Source of the DNA: Phycisphaerales bacterium
GTDB taxonomy: Bacteria; Planctomycetota; Phycisphaerae; Phycisphaerales; UBA1924
Direction of reading: 5' to 3'
NCBI GenBank assembly: GCA_040221175.1
Contig: JAVJVK010000019.1
Coordinates: 124,001-188,000, forward strand
Length of the DNA: 64,000 nucleotides
Under the pieces are notes generated by a model. The model did no database searches, was not told where the DNA came from, and was given only the letters and a program-made list of their open reading frames with translations. Within the stretch, counting starts at the first letter, position 1. Every line of letters starts with the position of its first letter. Shown here piece by piece: positions 22,058 through 45,556 of the stretch. Position numbers and translations under genes: made by a program.

Positions 22058-24055
22058 CTATGGGCAGCCGGCGTCGAATCGATTCTGGAACACCAGAAAG
22101 TCGAAGATCGTCAGCTCGCCGTCGCCGTCCAGGTCGGCCCGTGCGTCGCCCGCGTCGAACTGGTTCTGGTACTCGAGGAAGTCGAAGATGGTCAATTCGC
22201 CATCGCCGTCGCGGTCGGCGGCGCAGATGACGATCAGGACCGAGTCGCCCGTGTACACGACGTGCGCGGGGCCGATTGCGCCCACCGGCTCGATGCTCGT
22301 GCTGGCGAACGTGCCGCCGACGGCCGCCGCGCGGATGATCTCGAAGCGGTCGCGGCCATCGGGCGCGTAGTCGTGGGCGAAGCCGACCTCGAGGCTGCCG
22401 TCGAGCTCGATGACGGCGGTGACGGGATCGGGGAAGACCTCGGCGCCCTCGAGGCGGTCGAACTGGTCCTCGCCGGTTCCCGCCAGGTCGATCTGGAGGC
22501 GCGAGCGCGGCGTGAGCGTGAGCGCGGGCCCGGTGAATTCGACAAGGCCAACGGGGCTGGTCGCGTCGCCCGGGGAGATCGTTGCCCCGGTGGTCCACGA
22601 GCCGCTGAGCTTGCCGTTGGCGCCCGTGATGATCGCGTCGGGCCCGAGCGCGTGGGTGTCGCCGAGCCCGATGATCTCGCTGCCCTCGGTGCCCGCCAGG
22701 CGGATCGGGAAGTTGAGCGTCACGCCGTTCACGACGTAGAGCTGGGTCGCGGCGGCGACGCCGGGCGCGTTGATCGTCAGGCTGTCCTGTACCTGCACGC
22801 CGAAGTCGAACGTGAGGCGCTGGCCGCTCACGAGGGTGTAATCGCCCACGATGGTGGTGTCCGACACGGTGGTGTCGCGCGTCGTGCGGAAGCTGCCGCC
22901 CGGCCCGGCCTCGATGGTGGCGTTGATGATCGTGGCGCCGGCGATGTCCAGCCGCCCGCCGTTGCTGGCGTGCAGCGTGCCGCCGACGATGTTGAGGCCC
23001 GAGAGGCCGAAGCCGCCCGGCCCATCCTTGATGATCGTCGCCTCGCTGGTCCACGGCCCGACGATCGCCCCGCGCTCGCCGGTGATGACCGCATCGGGCC
23101 CCAGGAAATGCTCGTCGCCCAGCCCGATGATCTGCCCGCCCGTGGTTGCGCCTTCCAGCCGGATGGGGCCGCTCAGCGTCACGCGATCCTCGACGAAGAG
23201 CCGGGCATTGCCGCTGCCGCCGGGGTCGTTGATGATCAGGCCGTCTGTCAGGAAGACGCCGCCGCCGAATGTGATGTCCTGCCCGCCGCGGATCGTGAAC
23301 TCGCCCTCGAAGGTCGAGGCCGAGACGACCGTGCCCTGGTTGGTCACGAACCGGGAATCGGGCTCGACCTCGAAGGTCGCGCCGGTTACGGTCGCGTTGC
23401 CGAGGATCAGCAGCCCGCCGTCGGTGCTGCGCAGCGTACCGCCGATGATGTCCAGCCCGCTGGCGTTCAGCGTGCCGGGCCCATCCTTGATGATCGTCGC
23501 CTGGCTGGTCCACGGCCCGACGATGGAGCCGCTCTCCCCGCTCGCGGCGGTGATCACCGCGTTGCGGCCGAGGGTGTGCGACGAGCCGAGCCCGCGGATC
23601 CGGGCCCGGTCCGTCCTCGTTCCGCCAAGGCGGATGCTTATGTCGATGGTCGCGCTGTCCTCAACCAGCAATTCGGCGCTGCTGGTGCTCGTGCCGTCGC
23701 TGATGCGCAGCTCCCCTGCGCCCCTCAGCCCGCCAACGGTGAGCGATGCGCCGGGCCGGATCAGCAGTGACGCTTCGCGATTCTCCAGCAGAATTTCGCC
23801 AACCGGCGTCGGCGCACTGACGGTCACCGAGTACGGTCCGAAGCCGGCAAGCACAGCAGTGTCCATCGACCCCGGCACGGCCATTGGCAGCCAATTGCTG
23901 GCGACGGCGAAATCGCCATCGACGGGGTTGGCCCACTGGAAAGTGCTCTGTGCGAAAGAGGACGGGGCGGCGGCGAAGGCCCCCATGCCAGCGACGGCCA
24001 TCAGAGCGAGCGGCGTGCGCGCACGGATCGCTGGTGCGGTTGGGAATTGCGGCAT
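22058..24055 (-). CDS. Secreted beta-repeat protein with C-terminal dockerin-like EF-hand pair
   Basis: The protein has 665 residues. The signal peptide covers about 1-36 (TPLALMAVAGMGAFAAAPSSFAQ). The body has about 130-residue repeats of beta-helix character: GPWTSQATIIKDGPG and GPWTSEATIIKDGPG, GLDIIGGTLRSTDGG and GLNIVGGTLHASNGG, and a third looser copy ending GSWTTGATISPGD. The C-terminal 55 residues hold two near-identical calcium loops, DRDGDGELTIFDFLEYQNQF and DLDGDGELTIFDFLVFQNRF, typical of planctomycete dockerin-like tails, then end in FDAGCP. Likely extracellular or surface-bound; the ligand is unknown. The ATG at 24055 precedes the signal peptide and has GAGAG upstream. A hairpin (24121-24137) lies in its 5' leader. 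Confidence 0.88.
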   Translation of the reverse strand: MPQFPTAPAIRARTPLALMAVAGMGAFAAAPSSFAQSTFQWANPVDGDFAVASNWLPMAVPGSMDTAVLAGFGPYSVTVSAPTPVGEILLENREASLLIRPGASLTVGGLRGAGELRISDGTSTSSAELLVEDSATIDISIRLGGTRTDRARIRGLGSSHTLGRNAVITAASGESGSIVGPWTSQATIIKDGPGTLNASGLDIIGGTLRSTDGGLLILGNATVTGATFEVEPDSRFVTNQGTVVSASTFEGEFTIRGGQDITFGGGVFLTDGLIINDPGGSGNARLFVEDRVTLSGPIRLEGATTGGQIIGLGDEHFLGPDAVITGERGAIVGPWTSEATIIKDGPGGFGLSGLNIVGGTLHASNGGRLDIAGATIINATIEAGPGGSFRTTRDTTVSDTTIVGDYTLVSGQRLTFDFGVQVQDSLTINAPGVAAATQLYVVNGVTLNFPIRLAGTEGSEIIGLGDTHALGPDAIITGANGKLSGSWTTGATISPGDATSPVGLVEFTGPALTLTPRSRLQIDLAGTGEDQFDRLEGAEVFPDPVTAVIELDGSLEVGFAHDYAPDGRDRFEIIRAAAVGGTFASTSIEPVGAIGPAHVVYTGDSVLIVICAADRDGDGELTIFDFLEYQNQFDAGDARADLDGDGELTIFDFLVFQNRFDAGCP

Positions 24056-34424: not shown

Positions 34425-35423
34425 ATGCGAATCGTCAGCCTGCTGCCCTCGGCCACCGAGATCCTCTGCCTGGTGGGCGGGGGCGACCTGCTGGTCGGCC
34501 GCAGCCACGAGTGCGACTATCCCGAGGGCCTGGACCACCTGCCCGTGCTGACCGCCGCCCGGACCGCCTACGCCGGTGGTCCAGGTTCCGTTGGGGCGGC
34601 GGCCGACGTCGATCGGCAGGTCCGCGAAACGCTGTCTGATTCGTCCTCGCTGTACGAGTTGGACACGGAGATGCTCGAGTCGCTGCGGCCCGACATCATC
34701 CTCACGCAAAACCTCTGCGACGTGTGCTCGATCGCCTTACCGGAAGTGCAGGCGGCGGCCCGGCGCATCGGCGAGAAGACGGGAACCGAGCCCACCGTCA
34801 TCAGCCTCGACCCCCACACGCTCGAGCAGGTCTACGACGACTGCCTGACGATCGGTGCGGCCATCGGCAAGGAAGACGGAGCCACGCACGCCGTGGCCAC
34901 GCTCCGTGAGCGCTTCTATGCAGCCGCGGAGATCGTGCCGAGCTTCGCGTATGCGCCTGTTGTTGGCTTCCTGGAGTGGACCGACCCGCTCTTCATCGCC
35001 GGCCACTGGACGGTGCAGCTCATCGAACGCGCCGGCGGGCGGCACCCCCTGAACGAGACCATCGCCAAGGACGACGCCGGCGCCGCGGCCGGCGCCATGC
35101 ACAGCGAGCGCGTGGCGGGCAAGTCCATCGCCGTCCCGCCCGAGGTCTTCGTCGCCACCGCCCCCGAGGCGCTCGTGATCGCTCCGTGCGGACTCAACCT
35201 CGAGCAGACCCGCCACGCGACCGCCGAGATCGCCGGGCAGGACTGGTTCCGCTCGCTCCCCGCCGTCCAGAACGGCAAGGTCGCGCTCGTCGACGGCAAC
35301 CAGTACTTCAACCGGCCGGGGCCGAGGCTGGTCGACGCGTTCGAGTGGCTGGTGGCGTGGTTGCATGGGCGGGAGGATCGGATGCCGGATGGGTTCGCCT
35401 GGGAGCGATGGAAAGAGTCTTGA
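34425..35423 (+). CDS. Cobalamin-binding-type substrate-binding protein, no signal peptide (BtuF-like)
   Basis: This 332-residue class III periplasmic-binding fold protein opens with IVSLLPSATEILCLVGGGDLLVGRSHECD, the usual BtuF-like opening. LRPDIILTQNLCDVCSI near 100 and VALVDGNQYFNRPGPRLVDAFEWL near the C-terminus are also typical. I chose the ATG at 34425, so there is no signal peptide, as in several proteins annotated as cobalamin-binding from this group. Upstream codons from 34272 look like random GC-rich frame. It may bind corrinoids in the cytoplasm, or the ligand may be different. No cobalamin riboswitch is visible in the 216-bp gap to gspD. No ABC partner is adjacent. Confidence 0.82.
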   Translation: MRIVSLLPSATEILCLVGGGDLLVGRSHECDYPEGLDHLPVLTAARTAYAGGPGSVGAAADVDRQVRETLSDSSSLYELDTEMLESLRPDIILTQNLCDVCSIALPEVQAAARRIGEKTGTEPTVISLDPHTLEQVYDDCLTIGAAIGKEDGATHAVATLRERFYAAAEIVPSFAYAPVVGFLEWTDPLFIAGHWTVQLIERAGGRHPLNETIAKDDAGAAAGAMHSERVAGKSIAVPPEVFVATAPEALVIAPCGLNLEQTRHATAEIAGQDWFRSLPAVQNGKVALVDGNQYFNRPGPRLVDAFEWLVAWLHGREDRMPDGFAWERWKES

Positions 35424-35453
35424 TCGCATCCGGCGGCACTACCATTTGGAGCG

Positions 35454-35885
35454 ATGACGCGATGCCCGAAGTGCCGTTACGACGCCGCCATCCCGGACGC
35501 CACGTCCCGGGTTGTGTGCCCGGAGTGTGGCTTCGAGTACCTGCCCGCGGAGTCGTCGGATGCCATATCAAGCACGAATCGATCCGCGTTGGCCGCGATG
35601 CTGTTCACGGTCGTGTTGGCCGCGACGGCTGGCCTTGGCGCCTTGGCGTGGCTCCTGAACGACGACGTGTTCGCGCGTGACAGGATGCCGTGGTGGTACG
35701 CCGCCGTTCCGGCAAGCATCGTCGCGGCTTATGCGCTGATCGTCCGCGTGTTTTCTGACCTGTTCAACAAGTGCTGGCCGAGACCAAACCCCGGGCTCAT
35801 CGTGTACTTGTTGTTTGCCACTGGTTCCTACGCCGTGATCGCGATCGGGTTGCTCTGGCTCCGCGGCGTCGCGGCGCAGTCGTAG
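35454..35885 (+). CDS. Zinc-ribbon membrane protein of unknown function
   Basis: The 143-residue protein begins with a zinc ribbon (CPKCRYD at 4-10 and CPECGFEY at 22-29), followed by three likely membrane helices (about 45-65, 80-100 and 115-138). Such zinc-ribbon membrane proteins are common in planctomycetes, and their role is not known. It starts 31 bp after the BtuF-like gene on the same strand. Codon use and length look normal. I do not recognise a named family. Confidence 0.8.
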   Translation: MTRCPKCRYDAAIPDATSRVVCPECGFEYLPAESSDAISSTNRSALAAMLFTVVLAATAGLGALAWLLNDDVFARDRMPWWYAAVPASIVAAYALIVRVFSDLFNKCWPRPNPGLIVYLLFATGSYAVIAIGLLWLRGVAAQS

Positions 35886-35895
35886 CAGCAAGTGA

Positions 35896-36054
35896 AACAC
35901 GAGCCGGCGTCAGGCGCACGTGCAGCGCGCGACCGAGCTGGGCGCGAGCGTGCTGGTGCCCGCGCAGGACTTGCCCGAGGGCGAGCGGATGGCCGTGCTG
36001 CGAGACCCCGAGGGTGTGCCCTTCGTCGTCATGCAGCCGGCGCCCCGGGGCTGA
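35896..36054 (+). pseudogene. Remnant of a VOC (glyoxalase/bleomycin resistance) family gene
   Basis: From a stop at 35893-35895 to TGA 36052 the frame reads ...QRATELGASVLVPAQDLPEG, then ERMAVLRDPEGVPFVVMQPAP. This is the C-terminal beta-alpha-beta-beta unit of a VOC-domain protein, including the usual LRDPxG-F-V ending. The N-terminal half, which must pair with it to make an active site, is absent. No ribosome binding site is visible. It lies 10 bp after the zinc-ribbon gene, so it looks like a truncated relic left by a deletion. Confidence 0.7.
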
Positions 36055-36223
36055 GGGGCGGCGGGGGGTCTTCGGCGAGCAGCGCTGCGGCCGGGCAACG
36101 GGGGCCTCCCGTCCCGTCTGCCATCACGCCGCCCATCCCGGCTGCATTGCCAGCGGCCCGCCCCGGCCCAGGAGCCGCTCTCGGAACGCCCGCCGCGACC
36201 GAGGGCGTGGACGACGGCCCGGA
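36055..36223. other. Non-coding spacer before the first 21-bp array
   Basis: This is very GC-rich sequence with no gene I can support. Open frames across it exist only because stop codons are rare at this composition. Faint traces of the array pattern (GGAACGCCCG near 36183) suggest that decayed units extend the array to the left. Confidence 0.5.
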
Positions 36224-36412
36224 GGACGCGTCCGGGCATGCCGCGAACGCGTCCTGGAGCCCCGCAAACGCGTTCTGGGGGCGCCGGAACGCTGTCCCGG
36301 CACTCGGGACAGCGTTCCGAGGGGCTCGGACCGCGTTCTGGGGGCGTGCGAACACGGGCCGGGCGTGGCCGGACGCGTCCGGGGGCGACCAGGACGCCCG
36401 CCGGGCGGTCCA
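36224..36412. repeat. Array of nine 21-bp units with a palindromic core (first array)
   Basis: Nine units start at exactly 36224, 36245, 36266, 36287, 36308, 36329, 36350, 36371 and 36392. Each has a core of about 10 bp close to the perfect palindrome GGACGCGTCC, followed by about 11 bp that vary between units. The first and eighth cores are perfect; others are GAACGCGTCC, AAACGCGTTC and similar. The array sits between the VOC relic and the convergent end of the gene at 36434. Because 21 is a multiple of 3, all frames stay open across it, but no start codon or ribosome site suggests translation. Confidence 0.85.
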
Positions 36413-36433
36413 TCGCGGACTGTGAATCGTTGC

Positions 36434-37192
36434 TCAGCGGCCCTCGAGGGCGGCCCGGGTCTCCACGGCCAGGGCCGAGGCACGCTCGATGCAGTCGCGG
36501 GCCTCCTCGTCCACCGCGTCGGCGGCGGCCGACCAGGCCCGGTTGACTTGGCGTTCCATGGCGGCGAAGCGGTCCATGATGGCCGCGTAGCCCGAGAGCC
36601 CGTGGGCCGAGACGATCCGCTCACGGGTGTCCACGAAGGCCGGCACGTGCACGGCCTGCACCTCGCCCAGCCGCTCGATGATGGCGGCCTCGCGGTCGTG
36701 CTCGGTGGTCATGTGCGGCAGGTCGCGCCGCAGGCCCTCGATCGCGTCGATGATCGCCGCCAGCGAGGCCTCGGGCGAGTTCGTGCCGGGTGTCAGGCCC
36801 TCGCCCTCTCGTGATGCGGCCAGGCGCTGGCGCATGTCCATCCGCACGAGCGCCGCGCCCGCCAGCAGGCCGACCACCGCCAGCAGGAACCACCACCGGC
36901 CCGTCCAGCGCCCGAAGGCGAACTCCTTGACGCGGACGCGCTCGACGCCGGCGGCGCGGAGCTCGGCCAGCAGTTCGGCGGTCAGCTCGGTGTTCGCCGT
37001 CGCGATGGGCTCGCCCGGGGCCGCGGGATCGGCCGGCGGTTCGGCGGGCGTGGTCTCGCCCGCGGGCGCATTGAGCGTCAGGCCGACGAGCTGCTCGTCG
37101 GGCAGGTCCAGCGGCGGCACGTACGCGGTTGGCGCGAAGGACACGCCCAACACGAGGGCGGCGGTGATGATGAGGAAGCCGAGGATCTTCAT
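36434..37192 (-). CDS. Two-helix membrane protein next to the OPT transporter
   Basis: The 252-residue protein starts with a membrane helix (ILGFLIITAALVLGVSFAP), then a Pro/Ala/Glu-rich linker (about 40-70), a second helix at about 102-120 (WWFLLAVVGLLAGAALV), and a helical cytoplasmic domain of about 130 residues (AIIDAIEGLRRDLPHM, ASALAVETRAALEG). I do not recognise a family. I chose the ATG at 37192 because the hydrophobic segment follows at once. It begins 31 bp after the OPT transporter gene, so it may be an accessory subunit. Its 3' end faces the first 21-bp array. Confidence 0.75.
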   Translation of the reverse strand: MKILGFLIITAALVLGVSFAPTAYVPPLDLPDEQLVGLTLNAPAGETTPAEPPADPAAPGEPIATANTELTAELLAELRAAGVERVRVKEFAFGRWTGRWWFLLAVVGLLAGAALVRMDMRQRLAASREGEGLTPGTNSPEASLAAIIDAIEGLRRDLPHMTTEHDREAAIIERLGEVQAVHVPAFVDTRERIVSAHGLSGYAAIMDRFAAMERQVNRAWSAAADAVDEEARDCIERASALAVETRAALEGR

Positions 37193-37223
37193 GGCTGTGC
37201 TCCTCACGAGCGTGTGGTGGGGG

Positions 37224-39473
<2,250 letters not shown>

Positions 39474-39585
39474 CAGCGGCCTCCACGGGAATCTCCAAAC
39501 GTACGCCGCCCGGAACGCCAAGAAAAACTTGATGCGGCGCAAACCGAACGGCCCCGGGCCCGGTCTAATCCATCAGGACGCCCGC

Positions 39586-40185
39586 ATGACCATCGACCGA
39601 TCGCCAATCGAGGCCGCAGAGAACGCCCACGCCCACGCCGACGTGGGAGTGAGCGACGAACGTTTGCTCGCCCGATTCGCCCGCGATCGTGGCGACTCGA
39701 GCGCGGCCCTGCAGGAACTCGCCCGCCGCCACGAGCGCCGGCTGCTGGGCCTGTCGCTGGGCTTGTGCAACGGACGCGAGGACCTGACACGCGAGGCCGT
39801 GCAGGAGACCTGGGTGCGCGTCATCCGGCACGCCGGCACGTTCAAGGGCAAGAGCAGCTTCGCGACGTGGGTGTACCGCATCGCGGTGCATCGGTGCCGC
39901 GACGTGATGGCCAGGGAGCGGGCGCTGGCTCGCCGTGGGGGCCGCGCGAGCGAGCCGCCCACGGTCCGAGCGTCCGACGCAGACCTCGCGTGGACACGGA
40001 GCGTGGTCGGCGGCCTGCCGCAGCATGAACGGGAAGTCGTGCTGCTGTGCCACATGCGCGGCATGACCCACGAGCAGGCGGCGGCCGTGCTGGGCATCCC
40101 GCCGGGCACGCTCAAGACGCGGATGACTCGGGCGATGGGGCGGCTGCGCGACGTGATGGGCGAAGATCGGGGAGGCGACGCGTGA
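39586..40185 (+). CDS. ECF-type RNA polymerase sigma factor
   Basis: The 199-residue sigma factor has region 2 at about 28-100 (LLARFARDRGDSSAALQEL... EAVQETWVRVIRHAGTFKG...SFATWVYRIAVHRCRD) and region 4 at about 135-190 (LPQHEREVVLLCHMRGMTHE, then AAAVLGIPPGTLKTRMTRAM). The ATG at 39586 (MTIDRSPIEA) gives a normal length. The stop overlaps the start of the next gene (GTGA), so the two are coupled, as with a sigma factor and its regulator. Its promoter region faces the OPT transporter. Confidence 0.94.
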   Translation: MTIDRSPIEAAENAHAHADVGVSDERLLARFARDRGDSSAALQELARRHERRLLGLSLGLCNGREDLTREAVQETWVRVIRHAGTFKGKSSFATWVYRIAVHRCRDVMARERALARRGGRASEPPTVRASDADLAWTRSVVGGLPQHEREVVLLCHMRGMTHEQAAAVLGIPPGTLKTRMTRAMGRLRDVMGEDRGGDA

Positions 40186-41225
40186 ACGAGCGACCAAACG
40201 AACTGGAAGACCGCCTCGCCTCGCTGACCGAGTGGCGCGCCGAGCACGAGCCGGCGCTCTGGGAGAGCGCGCTCCGGCAGTCCAAGGAGCCCCCGGCCGA
40301 CGAGCCGCGGACGCTGCGCATCGCACCGAAGCACGTGGCGGGCATCGCGGCCGCGCTCACGATCGCGGCGGTGGGGCTGTGGGCGTCGATGGGGGTGCTC
40401 GGTCAGTCCAGATCGGCGGCGCCCGGCTTGGCGCCTGCCTTGTCGCGAGCACCGAGTGCGATGGATCTCGCCGAGTCGCGTGCATTTCCCGCCGGCGAGC
40501 GCGCCTTTGCGATGGGCCAGGACATGCACGCGTTCGACCTCGAACCACGCGCCATCCAACGCTCGGCCGCGATGGAACTCACAACCGACGCCGTCCGCCC
40601 GCTGTTCGATCGCGTCACCGCGCTCATCGATCCCGGCCTGGGCGAGTTCGTCGAGAATGCCTCGGCGGGCGAGGGCCGTGCCGACGCGACGCTGCGGGTC
40701 TCGGCCCAGCGTTTGGAAGCCGTCATGCGATCCATTCGCGACATGGACGGCGTGGCCGAGGTGGTGCGCGAGGAGCTGTCGGCGGTCGACGCGACGGATC
40801 GGCGGGCCGACCTCACAGCGCGGCTGGCAAACGAGCGTCGCATCGAGGTCGAGCTGCTCGAGCTCATCGACACGCGGCCCGACGCCCCGCTGGCCGACGT
40901 GCTGCGTGTGCGCGATGCACTGCGCGAGGTCCGGCTGAACATCGAACGCCTCGACGCCCAGCGCGCGACGCTCAACGAGCGGGTGGAGCTGGCGACGCTG
41001 CGCGTGAGCATCGTGCAGCTCGACGAGGAAGACCAGCCCGAGCCCGACGCCAGCGGCTTCCTGGACGACCTGGGCGACGCGTTCGTCCGCGGCGGCCGCA
41101 CGCTGGCCGGCTCGGCGGCGTGGATCGTCGAAGCGTTGATCGGCGGCTTGATCGCGTGGGTGATCCTGGCCGCCGCTGGCGTGTGGGCCTACCGAACGCT
41201 GCGCTGGCGGGCGACGTGGGCGTAG
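40182..41225 (+). CDS. DUF4349 membrane protein, possible anti-sigma factor
   Basis: The 347-residue protein starts at GTG 40182 within the sigma-factor stop. Residues 1-40 are charged and cytoplasmic, a helix lies at about 48-66 (VAGIAAALTIAAVGLWASM), a DUF4349 region at about 165-285 (RLEAVMRSIRDMDGVAEV, LADVLRVRDALREVRLNIER, RVELATLRVSIVQL), and a C-terminal helix at about 316-340. The cytoplasmic N-terminus before a single helix is the plan of an anti-sigma factor, but no zinc ZAS motif (HxxxCxxC) is present. That role is inferred from the gene pair only. Confidence 0.85.
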   Translation: MNERPNELEDRLASLTEWRAEHEPALWESALRQSKEPPADEPRTLRIAPKHVAGIAAALTIAAVGLWASMGVLGQSRSAAPGLAPALSRAPSAMDLAESRAFPAGERAFAMGQDMHAFDLEPRAIQRSAAMELTTDAVRPLFDRVTALIDPGLGEFVENASAGEGRADATLRVSAQRLEAVMRSIRDMDGVAEVVREELSAVDATDRRADLTARLANERRIEVELLELIDTRPDAPLADVLRVRDALREVRLNIERLDAQRATLNERVELATLRVSIVQLDEEDQPEPDASGFLDDLGDAFVRGGRTLAGSAAWIVEALIGGLIAWVILAAAGVWAYRTLRWRATWA

Positions 41226-41251
41226 GCCTTGGGGCCGGGTTCATACACCAC

Positions 41252-42739
41252 TCAACCGTCCGGTGATTCGCCCGAGGGCCGCAAGTACGACTCGTCGAGC
41301 ACGTAGAAACCCGGCTCGAGCATCTCCAGCGGGCGTGCCGAGGGCAACATGCCACGCCGCGGGGATTCGCTTGTCGTGTCTTCCCTGGCGCTATCGTTGC
41401 CAGCGGGCTTCAGCCCATCGCGGATCACCATGATCATGTCCGACAACGCCGCGGGGTGCTCGAAGAGGTAGGCGTGCGTGCTCACGCCGCCCACGCGGCA
41501 CTCGACGATCTCGATGCCCGGCAGGTCGTTGATGAGCGACCGGCTGATCGGGTCGAAGTCGTCCAGCTGCGCATCGCCCAGGCGGCCGCGGCTGGCGAAG
41601 AACAGGCGGGCGAGCCCCAGGGCGCCGTCCTCCTTCGACGTGTACACGACGACCCGCCGCGCGATGCGCATGACCCGTTCGGATAGGAACCGCTGGGTGA
41701 AGATGTCCAGGTCCAGGTCGGGCGCCACGAGCACGAGCGTCTCGAGCTTGAGCACGTCCGAGGGCCGCAACCCTTCGGCGAACGATGGCTCGACGAACTC
41801 GACCCGCTCGCCCAGGGTCTGGTGCGTGCGCTGGCTGAAGAACGTCCGGCCCTGGGCCGCCTCGATCTCGGCGGCGATCTCGCGCAGCGCCGTCGTCGTC
41901 ACGTCGGTGCCGCGGCTGTGGGCGACCAAGTGGATGCGGTCGATGTCCTCGTTGGCGGCCAGGGCCATCAGCAGCGTCTTGAGCTGCAGCACGCTGAACT
42001 CGCCCGACTCGCGGTCGTGGTTGTACGCCACGGGCTTGAAGAACGCGTCGAAGCCGGCCGGCCACGTGAACGCGATCGGGACGCCCTGCCGCCCCGCCGC
42101 GTGCCAGGTCTGGCCCAGGCGCAGGATGGCGTCATCGAAGGTGTTGTTGAACCCGTGCACGAAGACGATCGCCGCGTTGCCCTCTGGCCCATCGGTCAGG
42201 AAGGGCGCCAGCGTCGCGCGAAAGTCGGCCAGGTCCTGGGCGAAGGCGGCCGACGCCCCGGCGGGGTAGACCACCTCGCCGCCCTCGACGCGCAGCCGCC
42301 CCTCAAGCGACGCGATGGTGCCGGTCCGCTCGACCGACTCGACGCGCAGGGTGTAGTCACGGGGCCGGTCCGCGCTCGTGCTGTCGTCGACCAGTTGCTC
42401 CCAGGTCGGCTCGGGCAGCAGGCCAACCCGCGCCACGCCGAAGTTGATGTCCTGGCTGCGCTGGCTGCCGTAGTCGGGCATCGCGAAGGGGTCGTCGCTG
42501 TCGAGCGTGCGATCGCGGCGATCGGTGAAGTAGACGACCGGGATGTCGGGCGTCCGCAGGTGCTCGGGCACGGCCGAGTACACCTGCCCGCCGCGCTCGC
42601 CGACCATCACGCGCGGCGTATCGACCAGGCGCGTCTCGTGCCGGCAGCCGACGCCGGCGACGACGAGCGTGCACGCGAGCATCCAGAAGATGGCGGGGTA
42701 GTTGGCGGGAACGGCGAGGCGGCGCGGTCGTCTCGTCAT
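41252..42739 (-). CDS. DUF900 alpha/beta hydrolase, probable lipoprotein
   Basis: The protein has about 495 residues. The N-terminus has a hydrophobic helix ending in a lipobox-like VVAGVGC (cysteine near 32). The DUF900 hydrolase core begins IPVVYFTDRRDR near 66. The oxyanion region is IVFVHGFNNTFDDA near 193, the nucleophile elbow AHSRGTD near 272, and a later acid in VLVAPDLDLDIF. A Ser-Asp-His triad fits, with the histidine most likely at STHAYLF near 430. Esterase activity on an unknown substrate is likely. I chose the ATG at 42739. The gene is convergent with the DUF4349 gene (26 bp). Confidence 0.87.
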   Translation of the reverse strand: MTRRPRRLAVPANYPAIFWMLACTLVVAGVGCRHETRLVDTPRVMVGERGGQVYSAVPEHLRTPDIPVVYFTDRRDRTLDSDDPFAMPDYGSQRSQDINFGVARVGLLPEPTWEQLVDDSTSADRPRDYTLRVESVERTGTIASLEGRLRVEGGEVVYPAGASAAFAQDLADFRATLAPFLTDGPEGNAAIVFVHGFNNTFDDAILRLGQTWHAAGRQGVPIAFTWPAGFDAFFKPVAYNHDRESGEFSVLQLKTLLMALAANEDIDRIHLVAHSRGTDVTTTALREIAAEIEAAQGRTFFSQRTHQTLGERVEFVEPSFAEGLRPSDVLKLETLVLVAPDLDLDIFTQRFLSERVMRIARRVVVYTSKEDGALGLARLFFASRGRLGDAQLDDFDPISRSLINDLPGIEIVECRVGGVSTHAYLFEHPAALSDMIMVIRDGLKPAGNDSAREDTTSESPRRGMLPSARPLEMLEPGFYVLDESYLRPSGESPDG

Positions 42740-42757
42740 GGGCAAGCCTAGCGATGG

Positions 42758-44053
42758 CTACGCGCCCGCGCGGATAAACCACGTGGCCATGAATACCAGC
42801 GCGAAGGCCGTCCAGAACGCGATCCCCGCCCAGCTCAGCACGATGAGCCACCGGGCCGGCTTGTGCTCGGCGGGCACGGCGGTGCTCGTCATCGCGCGGT
42901 GGTTGAAGTACGCGATCGCCGGCGTGCCAAGGAAGCTCAGGGTCGTCGCGAGATCGACCATGTCCGACAGCGATCGCAGGAACACCGCGAGGATCACGAT
43001 TGCCCCGGCCGCGAGCACGGCCAGCCAGACCCAGTAGCCGCGGTTGCCCTTTGGCTCAACGCCGCGGAACTCGCCAAACAGCGCCGACATGGTGCGCGGG
43101 ATGGCGTCGAGCACGGTAATGGTCGTGCTGAACATGACGGCGATGGCGCAGGTGGCGATGAGCGGGCGGGACCATTGGCCCAGCGAATCGGTATACAGCC
43201 CGATGAGCTGGTTGGCAAAGCCGCCCGCGCCCGCCGCCGGCTCGACGCCCGTGCCGTAGAGCAGGGCCGCCCCGAGCACGACGAAGGCCAGCGCCAGCAC
43301 GACGCACAGCGCAAAGCCGATATAAAAATCCAGCTCGCACTCGCGCTTGCTGGCGGCGTGGCCGGTCTGCCTGTTCCTGGCCAGGCTCCAGAGCGAATGC
43401 CACACGGTGATGTCCAGCGGCGCGGGCATCCAGCCCACCAGGGCGACCGCGAACACGAGCAAGGCCAGGTTCCACTGCGTCGGCCACACGGGCGTCGCGC
43501 CCAGGTCCAGGTTGGGCACTTGCATCGCCGCGGCGAAGACGGTGCTGACCGCCATCACGAGCATGAGCGCCTTCACCACGCGGTCGAGCCATTTGAAACC
43601 GCCGCAAGCCAGCAGCCCGATGCACACAAGCAAGATGCCCGCGGCGACGACCCAGAGCGGCGCCCCGGACTCGGCAATGCCAGCTCGCGCCAGCAGCGGA
43701 TCGACGACCAGGGGCTTGACGAGCGCCGCCGTCACGGCCGTGACCGCCGCCTGGATGGTGAACATCGTGCCCACCTGGATGGCCGCGAATGCCCCCAGCG
43801 TCGCCGGCCCCTGGGCCCGGTAGGCGTGCAGCAGCGAACGTCCCGTCGCCGCGGCGTACCTGGGCCCGAACAGCATCGCCGGGAGTTTCATGAGGTGGGC
43901 CAGAACAACCAGCAGCACCAGCGACAGCCCATAGACCGCGCCCGCCCGCGTCGACTGCACGAGATGGCTGACGCCGATGGCCGCCCCGGCGAAGAGGATG
44001 CCCGGGCCGAGGGCCTTGAGGAAATTCGGCGTCGCCGGGGTAGGAGGGGGCAT
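42758..44053 (-). CDS. Nramp-related metal or cation transporter
   Basis: This 431-residue membrane protein has about eleven helices. The Nramp-family opening LGPGILFAGAAIGVSHLV is present, as is the conserved G-rich helix MQVP...VPT-type region. The usual metal-site motifs are changed: the first-helix DPGN is GAAIGVSH, and the sixth-helix MPH is MPAPLD. So the classic Mn/Fe ligands (Asp, Asn and Met) are only partly kept, and the substrate may not be a divalent metal. It could be an Nramp-related transporter for another cation. The 444-bp gap upstream holds the second 21-bp array. Confidence 0.8.
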   Translation of the reverse strand: MPPPTPATPNFLKALGPGILFAGAAIGVSHLVQSTRAGAVYGLSLVLLVVLAHLMKLPAMLFGPRYAAATGRSLLHAYRAQGPATLGAFAAIQVGTMFTIQAAVTAVTAALVKPLVVDPLLARAGIAESGAPLWVVAAGILLVCIGLLACGGFKWLDRVVKALMLVMAVSTVFAAAMQVPNLDLGATPVWPTQWNLALLVFAVALVGWMPAPLDITVWHSLWSLARNRQTGHAASKRECELDFYIGFALCVVLALAFVVLGAALLYGTGVEPAAGAGGFANQLIGLYTDSLGQWSRPLIATCAIAVMFSTTITVLDAIPRTMSALFGEFRGVEPKGNRGYWVWLAVLAAGAIVILAVFLRSLSDMVDLATTLSFLGTPAIAYFNHRAMTSTAVPAEHKPARWLIVLSWAGIAFWTAFALVFMATWFIRAGA

Positions 44054-44259
44054 GACCGTCAGGGTAGCGGGGCGTTCGGTGCCGCCGGGCGGCCCTCCTT
44101 GATCCAGAGCTTCTGCCTACAGAGTCTCTTGATCCCGCCCTTCTCGGTCCAGAGCTTCTCGGTCCACGAGAACCACGGCCCGGCCAGATTCTCCACCAGT
44201 ATCGCCGGTTTCAGCCCCAACGCGGACGTGCGGCGGGGTTCGGGCGGCGGCGTTTTTCT
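44054..44259. other. Non-coding spacer upstream of the Nramp-related gene
   Basis: No gene is supported. A short region (44101-44166) has loose 15-bp-spaced copies of CTTCTCGGTCC and CCAGAGCTTCT, which may be decayed repeats. The promoter for the minus-strand transporter should lie here, but I cannot identify it. Confidence 0.5.
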
Positions 44260-44457
44260 GATCAGGTCTGGAGCATCTCCCGCTTCCTGAGGAGCATCTC
44301 CGATCAGGTCTGGAGCATTTCCTGCTTCCGGCGGAGCATCTCCGATCGGGTTTAGAGCATTTCCTGCTTCCGGCAGAGCATCTCCGATCGGGTTTGGAAC
44401 ATTTCCTGCTTCCGGCAGAGCATCTCTGATGGGGTTTGGAGCATCTCCTGCTTCCCG
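44260..44457. repeat. Tandem array with 42-bp units built from 21-bp half units (second array)
   Basis: Four complete 42-bp copies start at 44260, 44302, 44344 and 44386, with a partial fifth at 44428. Each copy is two 21-bp half units. Both end in GGAGCATCTCC or a near variant, a core with the inverted repeat GGAG/CTCC. One half begins GATCAGGTCT or similar, the other TGCTTCCGGC or similar. That gives nine cores at exact 21-bp spacing. It lies between the Nramp-related gene's promoter and the 3' end of the alcohol dehydrogenase gene. One minus frame reads a heptad (SEMLCRK, QEMFQTR), but a stop inside the third copy breaks it. Confidence 0.9.
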
Positions 44458-44497
44458 CGGGCGTCCGGGAACGCGCCGGGGGCTTCTCGGACTGTGC

Positions 44498-45556
44498 CTA
44501 AGACAGGCTCGCCATGTCGATCACGAAGCGGTACTTCACGTCGCTCTTGAGCATCCGTTCGTACGCCTCGTTGATCTGGTCCATGCGGATCATCTCGATC
44601 TCGCACTGGATGTTCTCTTTGCCGCAGAAGTCGAGCATCTCCTGGGTCTCGGCGATGCCGCCGATGAGCGAGCCGGCGAGCGTGCGGCGCGGGGCGACCA
44701 GGCCGAAGACCGCGACCGGCTGGGGGTTGGGCGGGATACCGACGAGGACCAGCGTGCCGTCGAGCTTGAGCTGGTTGAGGTACATGTTCAGGTCATGGTC
44801 GGCGCTGACGGTGTCGAGGATCAGGTCGAAGCTGCCGGCGTGGGCCTGCATTTCTTCTTCGTTCCTGGAGATCACCACCTCGTCAGCGCCCAGCTTCTTG
44901 CCGTCGGCGACCTTGCCCGGGCTGGTAGTGAACAGCACGGTGTGCGCGCCCATGGCGTGGGCGAACTTGACGCCCATGTGGCCCAGGCCACCGAGACCAA
45001 CCACGCCCACCTTCTTGCCCTTGCCGGCGCCCCAGCGCTTCAGCGGCGAGTACGTCGTGATGCCCGCGCACAGCAGCGGGGCGGCGGCGGCGGGGTCGAG
45101 GTTCTTTGGGACCTGGAGCGTGAACTTCTCGTCGCACACCACGCGCTGCGAGTAGCCGCCGTAGGTCATGCCGCCGAGGTGCTTGTCGGGTCCGTTGTAG
45201 GTAAAGATCGCGCCCTGCTCGCAGTACTGCTCCTCGTCCTGCTTGCAGTTGGCGCACGTGCCGCACGAGTCGACCATGCAGCCCACCGCCGCCAGGTCGC
45301 CCTCCTTGAAGCGCGTGACCTTCGAGCCCACGCGCGTGACGCGGCCGAGGATCTCGTGGCCCGGCACCACGGGGTAGGTCGTGCCGCCCCATTCGTTGCG
45401 GGCGAAGTGCAGGTCGCTGTGGCACACCCCGCAGTAGAGGATCTCGATCTCGACGTCCGTCGGCGTCGGCTCGCGACGCTGGATGTCGAAGGGGCCTAGC
45501 GGGCTGGTGGCGGACTGGGCGGCGTAGGCCTTCGTGGGGGTGGTGGGGGTGGTCAT
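44498..45556 (-). CDS. Zinc-dependent alcohol dehydrogenase (YahK/cinnamyl-type)
   Basis: This cytosolic NADP(H)-dependent medium-chain dehydrogenase has 352 residues. The catalytic zinc ligands are in CGVCHSDLH near 42 and GHEILGRV near 66, and the structural zinc cysteines are in CGTCANCKQDEEQYC near 99. The nucleotide fold has VVGLGGLGHMGVKFA near 185. It would interconvert aldehydes and primary alcohols, probably in the reducing direction. The ATG at 45556 begins MTTPTTP. It lies 62 bp downstream of fabG on the same strand and 41 bp upstream of the second array. Confidence 0.95.
   Translation of the reverse strand: MTTPTTPTKAYAAQSATSPLGPFDIQRREPTPTDVEIEILYCGVCHSDLHFARNEWGGTTYPVVPGHEILGRVTRVGSKVTRFKEGDLAAVGCMVDSCGTCANCKQDEEQYCEQGAIFTYNGPDKHLGGMTYGGYSQRVVCDEKFTLQVPKNLDPAAAAPLLCAGITTYSPLKRWGAGKGKKVGVVGLGGLGHMGVKFAHAMGAHTVLFTTSPGKVADGKKLGADEVVISRNEEEMQAHAGSFDLILDTVSADHDLNMYLNQLKLDGTLVLVGIPPNPQPVAVFGLVAPRRTLAGSLIGGIAETQEMLDFCGKENIQCEIEMIRMDQINEAYERMLKSDVKYRFVIDMASLS

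What the first reader, a model, noticed from the sequence alone, without database searches (positions are those of the whole stretch)
36224..44457. Two arrays with different cores but one geometry
The arrays are 8 kb apart, share no core sequence, yet both have nine complete units of 21 bp with a 10-11-bp palindromic core and a 10-11-bp spacer. Equal geometry with different sequence suggests a common generating process or a family of binding proteins with different specificities.
Basis: partly seen in the sequence, partly recalled or inferred. Interest (0 to 1): 0.7.

Follow-up and report, generated by a model that had tools for sequence, protein, structure and literature searches.

The report
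21-bp arrays with interchangeable sequences
The two repeat arrays belong to a previously unnoticed class of roughly a hundred non-coding arrays in this planctomycete genome that all repeat every 21 bp (two turns of DNA) although their sequences differ, and across the phylum such arrays sit again and again just upstream of one uncharacterised gene family.

Summary
Array A (36224-36412) is nine 21-bp units. Array B (44260-44457) is a 42-bp repeat of two 21-bp half-units that share one core. Both are far above chance. Pooled over 15 genomes the counts are 52 at lag 21, 0 at lag 20 and 1 at lag 22. The arrays are not coding. They have a conserved, often palindromic core and a freer spacer. They occur 5' of one uncharacterised protein family (helical domain plus fibronectin-III-like domain, about 45 copies here): 18 of 29 genes against 40 of 1540 others (p = 3e-20). 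The link recurs in seven planctomycete families at GC 0.41-0.73, with a 21n period. Orthologous genes keep an array at the same place, sometimes with the same core, sometimes with another. The two window arrays are "solo" arrays in segments absent from the closest relative; A has the same core as a family-linked array. Most likely these are rows of protein-binding sites phased by two helical turns, upstream of sigma-28-like promoters. The binding protein is unknown.

The parts
36224..36412 (.). Array A: nine 21-bp units, core GGAACGCGTTCC-like (ACGCGT), spacer ~9 bp
   Evidence: same core family at five further loci in four species
36286..36318 (.). Centre of array A: inverted asymmetric pair GGAACGCTGTCCCG-N5-CGGGACAGCGTTCC, two sites in opposite orientation one 21-bp period apart
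   Evidence: present in all six A-type arrays in four species with different loops
35406..36443 (.). Segment with array A that is absent from the closest relative G005 (20 bp remain between the two homologous flanks there)
44260..44457 (.). Array B: 42-bp unit = two 21-bp half-units sharing GGAGCATYTCC, with alternating spacers (ATCRGGTYTG / GCTTCCGGCR)
44054..44497 (.). Segment with array B between the zinc alcohol dehydrogenase stop and the NRAMP-like start; G005 has only ~10 bp here, and G001 has a different 42-bp array of another sequence upstream of the same NRAMP gene
42758..44053 (-). NRAMP-like metal transporter gene (431 aa) downstream of array B; anchor for synteny (function named from sequence, own knowledge)
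44498..45556 (-). zinc-dependent alcohol dehydrogenase-like gene (352 aa) on the other side of array B (function named from sequence, own knowledge)
36434..37192 (-). conserved 252-aa membrane protein gene whose 3' end is next to array A

Best explanation
Arrays A and B are two members of a class of non-coding tandem arrays in Planctomycetota. SHOWN: the period is 21 bp (or 42/63/84 as higher-order copies) while the sequence differs between arrays; each unit tends to have a contiguous conserved core with dyad symmetry and a freer spacer; arrays change length in whole units; one clade of a helical+FN3-like gene family carries them 5' of the gene and passes them on vertically; the core is kept for a while and then turns over at a constant period. 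INFERRED: each unit is a binding site for a dimeric DNA-binding protein, the 21-bp spacing puts all sites on one face of the double helix so that proteins bind side by side, and the array is an upstream control or assembly element for genes that share a flagellin-type (sigma-28-like) promoter motif 120-230 bp downstream of the array. The many different cores would mean several diverging binding proteins, or a binder that follows its array. Solo arrays such as A and B would be extra targets of such factors, or arrays left behind after the linked gene was lost; A has the same core as the family-linked array at G000:C1:120227.
For: Period: best lag 21n in 32 of 37 non-coding periodic windows; pooled counts lag 21 = 52, lag 42 = 47, next best lag 14 = 6, lag 20 = 0, lag 22 = 1. 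Core/spacer: six A-type arrays in four species, core columns 0.81 and spacer 0.61 conserved, central inverted pair kept in all six; mismatches unevenly spread over columns in 72 arrays (mean z 1.41, contiguity z 0.63); excess dyad symmetry (13.9 v 12.1, 0 of 300 permutations); 10.5-bp purine periodicity (p = 7e-4 v intergenic DNA). Linkage: 18/29 family genes v 40/1540 others have an upstream array, p = 2.5e-20, downstream only 1/29; 38/66 upstream regions (two counted twice) at lag 21n v 0 at lags 17, 19, 20, 22, 23, 25; 22/33 wider-family loci in seven planctomycete families; array presence clusters on the gene tree (9 changes v 21 shuffled, 0/500) and agrees in 12/13 ortholog pairs. Solo and linked arrays with one core in one genome: L059/L064, L050/window A, G001 C182/C141. 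Shared promoter motif with a flagellin gene.
Against: No DNA-binding protein was identified. The linked proteins are acidic and match no DNA-binding domain. Some arrays show no dyad symmetry (e.g. G025 L184:16039). Arrays in general are not enriched near promoters: flanking-gene orientation matches the genomic baseline, and array A lies between convergent genes. About half of the family genes, mainly one clade, have no array. Three linked/solo pairs do not show that every solo array has a linked partner; none was found for B.
Confidence: 0.42

Rival explanations
1. Selfish or neutral minisatellites: an ancestral 21-bp array was duplicated together with the gene family; units mutate and are homogenised by slippage and unequal exchange, which keeps the period without any function.
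For: Higher-order periods 42/63/84 and length changes of exactly 21 and 42 bp between G000 and G005 at an orthologous array are typical of unequal exchange; array presence follows the gene tree; many arrays are solo with no orientation bias.
Against: Sequence has turned over completely while the period has not drifted to 20 or 22, which needs constraint if indels occur at ordinary rates. Core is conserved over spacer. An asymmetric central pair is kept in six arrays. Position is strictly 5' of the family.
Confidence: 0.27
2. Arrays are recombination or integration sites: variable gene segments are gained and lost at them, as at an attachment site.
For: Both window arrays lie in segments (~1.04 kb, ~0.44 kb) absent from G005, and the L056 array lies with a family gene and secreted-protein genes in a 5-kb segment replaced by 111 bp in G005; G001 has another array and another gene at the site of B.
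Against: No integrase, no shared ends and no common sequence between arrays were seen. Orthologous arrays stay in place across species. Gain was not separated from loss.
Confidence: 0.13
3. The arrays act as RNA: transcribed rows of small hairpins, for instance a separate non-coding RNA or a leader.
For: Folding energies are lower than for column-shuffled arrays (mean z -1.7 on + and -1.6 on -).
Against: No strand preference: mean sense minus antisense -0.012 kcal/mol per nt in 18 linked arrays, as expected from double-stranded palindromes. No systematic terminator between array and gene (2/36).
Confidence: 0.08
4. The arrays are missed protein-coding heptad repeats (21 bp = 7 codons, coiled coil).
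For: Some frames read as heptads (e.g. TRQELLP, QNRFTAL, PAFRETL) and the period is a multiple of three.
Against: No third-position excess of variation (p = 0.7, lower at the putative third position). Codon likelihood far below genes (median -0.08 v 0.33). Open frames and 3-bp composition period equal those of ordinary intergenic DNA. Array B is cut by stops in the two frames examined.
Confidence: 0.03

Closest known systems
Plasmid/phage iterons and other direct-repeat protein-binding arrays
   Same: Direct repeats of ~17-22 bp whose spacing of about two helical turns places bound proteins on one face (own knowledge)
   Different: One sequence per replicon and a linked replication initiator; here dozens of chromosomal arrays per genome, most with their own sequence, and no initiator or partition gene seen next to them
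Bacterial minisatellites / VNTRs ('Satellites in the prokaryote world', PMC6749651)
   Same: Head-to-tail copies, length changes in whole units, higher-order units
   Different: The passages read of that survey describe no class of non-coding arrays with one constant period and different sequences tied to a gene family; it reads multiples of 3 as coding, whereas these are multiples of 3 and non-coding
REP/BIME elements (GTAG/CGTC-tagged palindromes, PMC3733652)
   Same: Intergenic, palindromic, many per genome
   Different: REPs share one sequence across the genome; here period, not sequence, is shared
CRISPR arrays
   Same: Regular repeats with variable intervening sequence
   Different: 21-bp period, spacers of ~9 bp, core differs per array, no cas-like genes noticed at the arrays
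Upstream operator clusters (e.g. ARG boxes, 21 bp centre to centre; own knowledge)
   Same: Dimer sites 21 bp apart on one helical face upstream of a promoter
   Different: Two sites of one regulator with one consensus; here 5-15 sites and dozens of different consensus sequences

Membership tests
Bacterial minisatellite (VNTR) | head-to-tail units with changes in unit number | tested here: met
   TRF; indels of exactly 21 and 42 bp between orthologous arrays
Bacterial minisatellite (VNTR) | unit length is specific to each locus | tested here: not met
   the same 21-bp period at unrelated loci, species and families
Iteron origin / centromere | linked replication-initiator or partition gene | tested here: not met
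   neighbours of 30 arrays were listed and clustered; the recurrent neighbour is the FN3-like family, not a Rep/Par gene
Iteron origin / centromere | one sequence bound by one protein | tested here: not met
   sequence part only: 74 arrays gave few pairs with similar cores; binding itself was not testable
REP/BIME | one shared palindrome genome-wide | tested here: not met
   array B has no DNA relative in its genome, array A few
CRISPR | constant repeat with unique ~30-bp spacers and cas genes | tested here: not met
   21-bp period with ~9-bp spacers; no cas gene noted among flanks
Coding heptad repeat | open frame with codon-like variation | tested here: not met
Tandem operator array | conserved core, variable spacer, fixed phase | tested here: met
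   phase
Tandem operator array | a protein binds the units | not testable with these tools
   needs DNA-binding experiments
sigma-28-like promoter downstream of linked arrays | motif shared with a flagellin gene | tested here: inconclusive
   strict pattern 8/56 family genes v 5/887 others (p = 1e-7), one of those 5 being a flagellin gene; the pattern also lies upstream of the G005 copy, a near variant in G004

The most novel reading that the evidence does not exclude
A phylum-wide cis-element whose conserved property is its period (two helical turns) and not its sequence: each array is read by its own fast-diverging dimeric protein, so that array cores and binding proteins co-evolve at constant spacing, upstream of a large sigma-28-type gene family.
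Probability: 0.33. Interest if true: 0.87.

Novelty: categorically new. Interest (0 to 1): 0.72.

Why it matters
Regulatory DNA is normally recognised by a conserved sequence. Here the conserved property is a spacing of two helical turns, kept across a phylum while the sequence is exchanged, next to a large paralogous family without any annotation. It gives a handle on that family (about 45 copies in this 3.4-Mb genome) and a natural experiment on how binding sites change specificity while keeping geometry. It also cautions against reading every repeat length that is a multiple of three as coding. 'Categorically new' refers to the class as defined by period, position and gene linkage; as bare repeats they are minisatellites. 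Only an open-access literature library could be searched.

Tried and rejected
1) Coding heptad repeats: suspected from open frames, a 3-bp composition period and heptad-like translations; rejected after an intergenic control gave the same signals. 2) Enrichment in divergent promoters: suspected from the first 30 arrays, rejected, since orientation equals the genome baseline. 3) RNA hairpins: foldable, but no strand preference. 4) Systematic intrinsic terminator between array and gene: seen in examples, not general (2/36). 5) FN3-family protein as the DNA binder: weakened by acidic pI and no DNA-binding match. 6) Defence or phage origin: PADLOC and PHROG scans gave only weak hits; no plasmid match and no viral relative. 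9) Ten literature searches found no description of the class.

Full report
OBSERVATION. The window is G000:C19:124001-188000 of a 3.44-Mb assembly. The nearest named records are Phycisphaerae (Planctomycetota) metagenome genomes. Array A (36224-36412) consists of nine 21-bp units; lag-21 identity is 0.595 over 168 bp against a window mean of 0.319 (sd 0.043), a maximum elsewhere of 0.464 and a shuffle maximum of 0.435. Array B (44260-44457) is a 42-bp repeat (lag-42 identity 0.90) made of two 21-bp halves that share GGAGCATYTCC and alternate two spacers.

A CLASS, NOT A PAIR. In 928 kb of this genome, 32 of 37 non-coding periodic windows have best lag 21, 42, 63 or 84; the others are 14 (3), 17 and 34. 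Periodic coding windows are mostly lag 81, a C-terminal dockerin-like repeat. Forty stretches chosen without regard to array hits (799 kb) hold 24 arrays, 3.0 per 100 kb, or roughly 100 per genome. Pooled over 15 genomes the counts are lag 21 = 52, lag 42 = 47, next best lag 14 = 6, lag 20 = 0 and lag 22 = 1. Their sequences differ: in 74 arrays only a few pairs share a core. A block-shuffled control gave two windows at other lags.

ANATOMY. The arrays are not coding. Substitutions show no third-position excess; codon likelihood lies far below genes; the apparent 3-bp composition period and the open frames equal those of ordinary intergenic DNA. The 21-bp consensus has more dyad symmetry than permuted columns (13.9 v 12.1, 0 of 300) and a 10.5-bp purine periodicity (p = 7e-4). 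Mismatches cluster in a spacer, leaving a contiguous core (72 arrays, mean z 1.41 and 0.63); in the linked array of L203 the core TCATCGCGGTGA is almost invariant while the 9-bp spacers vary. Part of the unevenness also comes from the alternating half-units of 42-bp arrays such as B. Growth is by whole units: an orthologous array in G000 and G005 differs by gaps of exactly 42 and 21 bp. Folding is symmetric between strands.

A-TYPE ARRAYS. The core of array A recurs at five other loci in four species. In 21-bp register the core is conserved 0.81 and the spacer 0.61, and all six arrays have at the centre the inverted asymmetric pair ACGCTGTCCC-N7-GGGACAGCGT (one mismatch in G001 C141, one G-U type change in G006) with different loops. 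Four of the six lie upstream of orthologous genes (61-69% identity to the G000 copy) of the family described next; array A and G001 C141 are solo.

LINKED GENE FAMILY. Many arrays lie 5' of a ~220-aa protein family: a helical N-terminal domain followed by a fibronectin-III-like domain (PDB 3mpc, E 1.5e-7). No Pfam or NCBIfam family passes its cut-off. G000 has 45 matches, G004 43, G002 of the same genus 2. An array lies within 600 bp upstream of 18/29 family genes against 40/1540 others (p = 2.5e-20), and downstream of only 1/29. With more genes it is 38/66 upstream regions (two genes counted twice; 36/64 without them), against zero at lags 17, 19, 20, 22, 23 and 25. A wider branch of the family in other planctomycete families shows the same: in 33 loci (families f1, f2, f4, f6, f8, f9, f20, f32, f57; GC 0.41-0.73) 22 have an upstream array at lag 21, 42 or 63, in f1, f2, f4, f6, f20, f32 and f57. 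Genomes with few family genes had no arrays in the stretches read: G002 0 in 200 kb, G021 and G056 0 in 100 kb each.

INHERITANCE. On the gene tree array presence needs 9 changes against 21 for shuffled labels (0/500), with one array-rich and one mostly array-less clade. Of 13 reciprocal-best pairs G000/G004, 12 agree in presence. Of seven with arrays in both, three share a core clearly; the others keep the position and the 21-bp period with cores that no longer match significantly, although L203, L217 and their paralogue L037 still share an ATCGCG element. Cores thus drift and turn over while the period stays. Solo arrays can share the core of a linked array in the same genome: L059/L064 (z 9.9), L050/array A (z 7.4), G001 C182/C141 (z 5.9).

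THE TWO WINDOW LOCI. The closest relative G005 lacks 35406-36443 (array A) and has about 10 bp instead of the ~440 bp holding array B, between an alcohol-dehydrogenase gene and an NRAMP-like gene. G001 has, upstream of the same NRAMP gene, a different gene and a different 42-bp array, 97% regular. Gain and loss were not distinguished. B has no recognisable relative in its genome or in 150 family genomes apart from short matches.

HOW IT MAY WORK. Conserved core, free spacer, dyad symmetry and exact two-turn spacing are the signature of rows of dimer-binding sites on one face of DNA. Downstream of the linked arrays the family shares a motif (CTGAAGTCGCCC-N~12-CCGTCGAT/CCCGAT) that also precedes a flagellin gene in G000 and G005 (close variant in G004) and resembles sigma-28 promoters (the resemblance to sigma-28 is own knowledge). 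From the positions the arrays end about 120-230 bp upstream of it. The inferred model is an upstream nucleoprotein element controlling or marking these genes. The binder is unknown; the family proteins are acidic. The main rival is a non-functional satellite inherited with the genes; it does not explain why no 20- or 22-bp arrays arose while sequences turned over, nor the core/spacer contrast.

LIMITS. Genes were called by a simple codon-likelihood script. Stretches were samples, and four (L047-L050) were chosen because they held hits, so rates were taken from the 799-kb set. Literature was searched only in an open-access library; the passages read of a survey of prokaryotic satellites (PMC6749651) do not describe the class.

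Noticed in passing
L030:12011-12898 (-), L299, L300, L301; family upstream regions: A flagellin gene and many FN3-like family genes share a sigma-28-like promoter motif, so the family may belong to the flagellar regulon of the swarmer cell.
   Followed up: partly
window 44094-44167: Next to array B lies a degenerate run of ~15-bp repeats (AGAAGCTCTGGACCG type on the - strand) inside the segment that G005 lacks.
   Followed up: no
window 35913-36055 (+): Open fragment ending ...TELGASVLVPAQDLPEGERMAVLRDPEGVPFVVMQPAPRG, like the C-terminal end of a glyoxalase/VOC protein without its start: probably a gene remnant beside array A.
   Followed up: no
window 22067-22219 and ~60 coding places in the sampled stretches: 81-bp coding repeat ('DLDGDGELTIFDFLAFQNAFDA'), a dockerin-like C-terminal tail on very many secreted proteins; about 60 lag-81 windows in 928 kb.
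   Followed up: no
L056:10470-15524: A ~5-kb segment with a family gene, its array and secreted-protein genes is replaced by 111 bp in G005.
   Followed up: partly
L079:1271 and L172:5467: Rare exceptions: repeats with period 23 (G012) and 28 (G006) near family genes or 21-bp arrays.
   Followed up: no
L141:8085-9041: In G001 the gene between the SDR gene and NRAMP is unrelated to the alcohol dehydrogenase found there in G000 and G005: a variable gene position beside the array.
   Followed up: no
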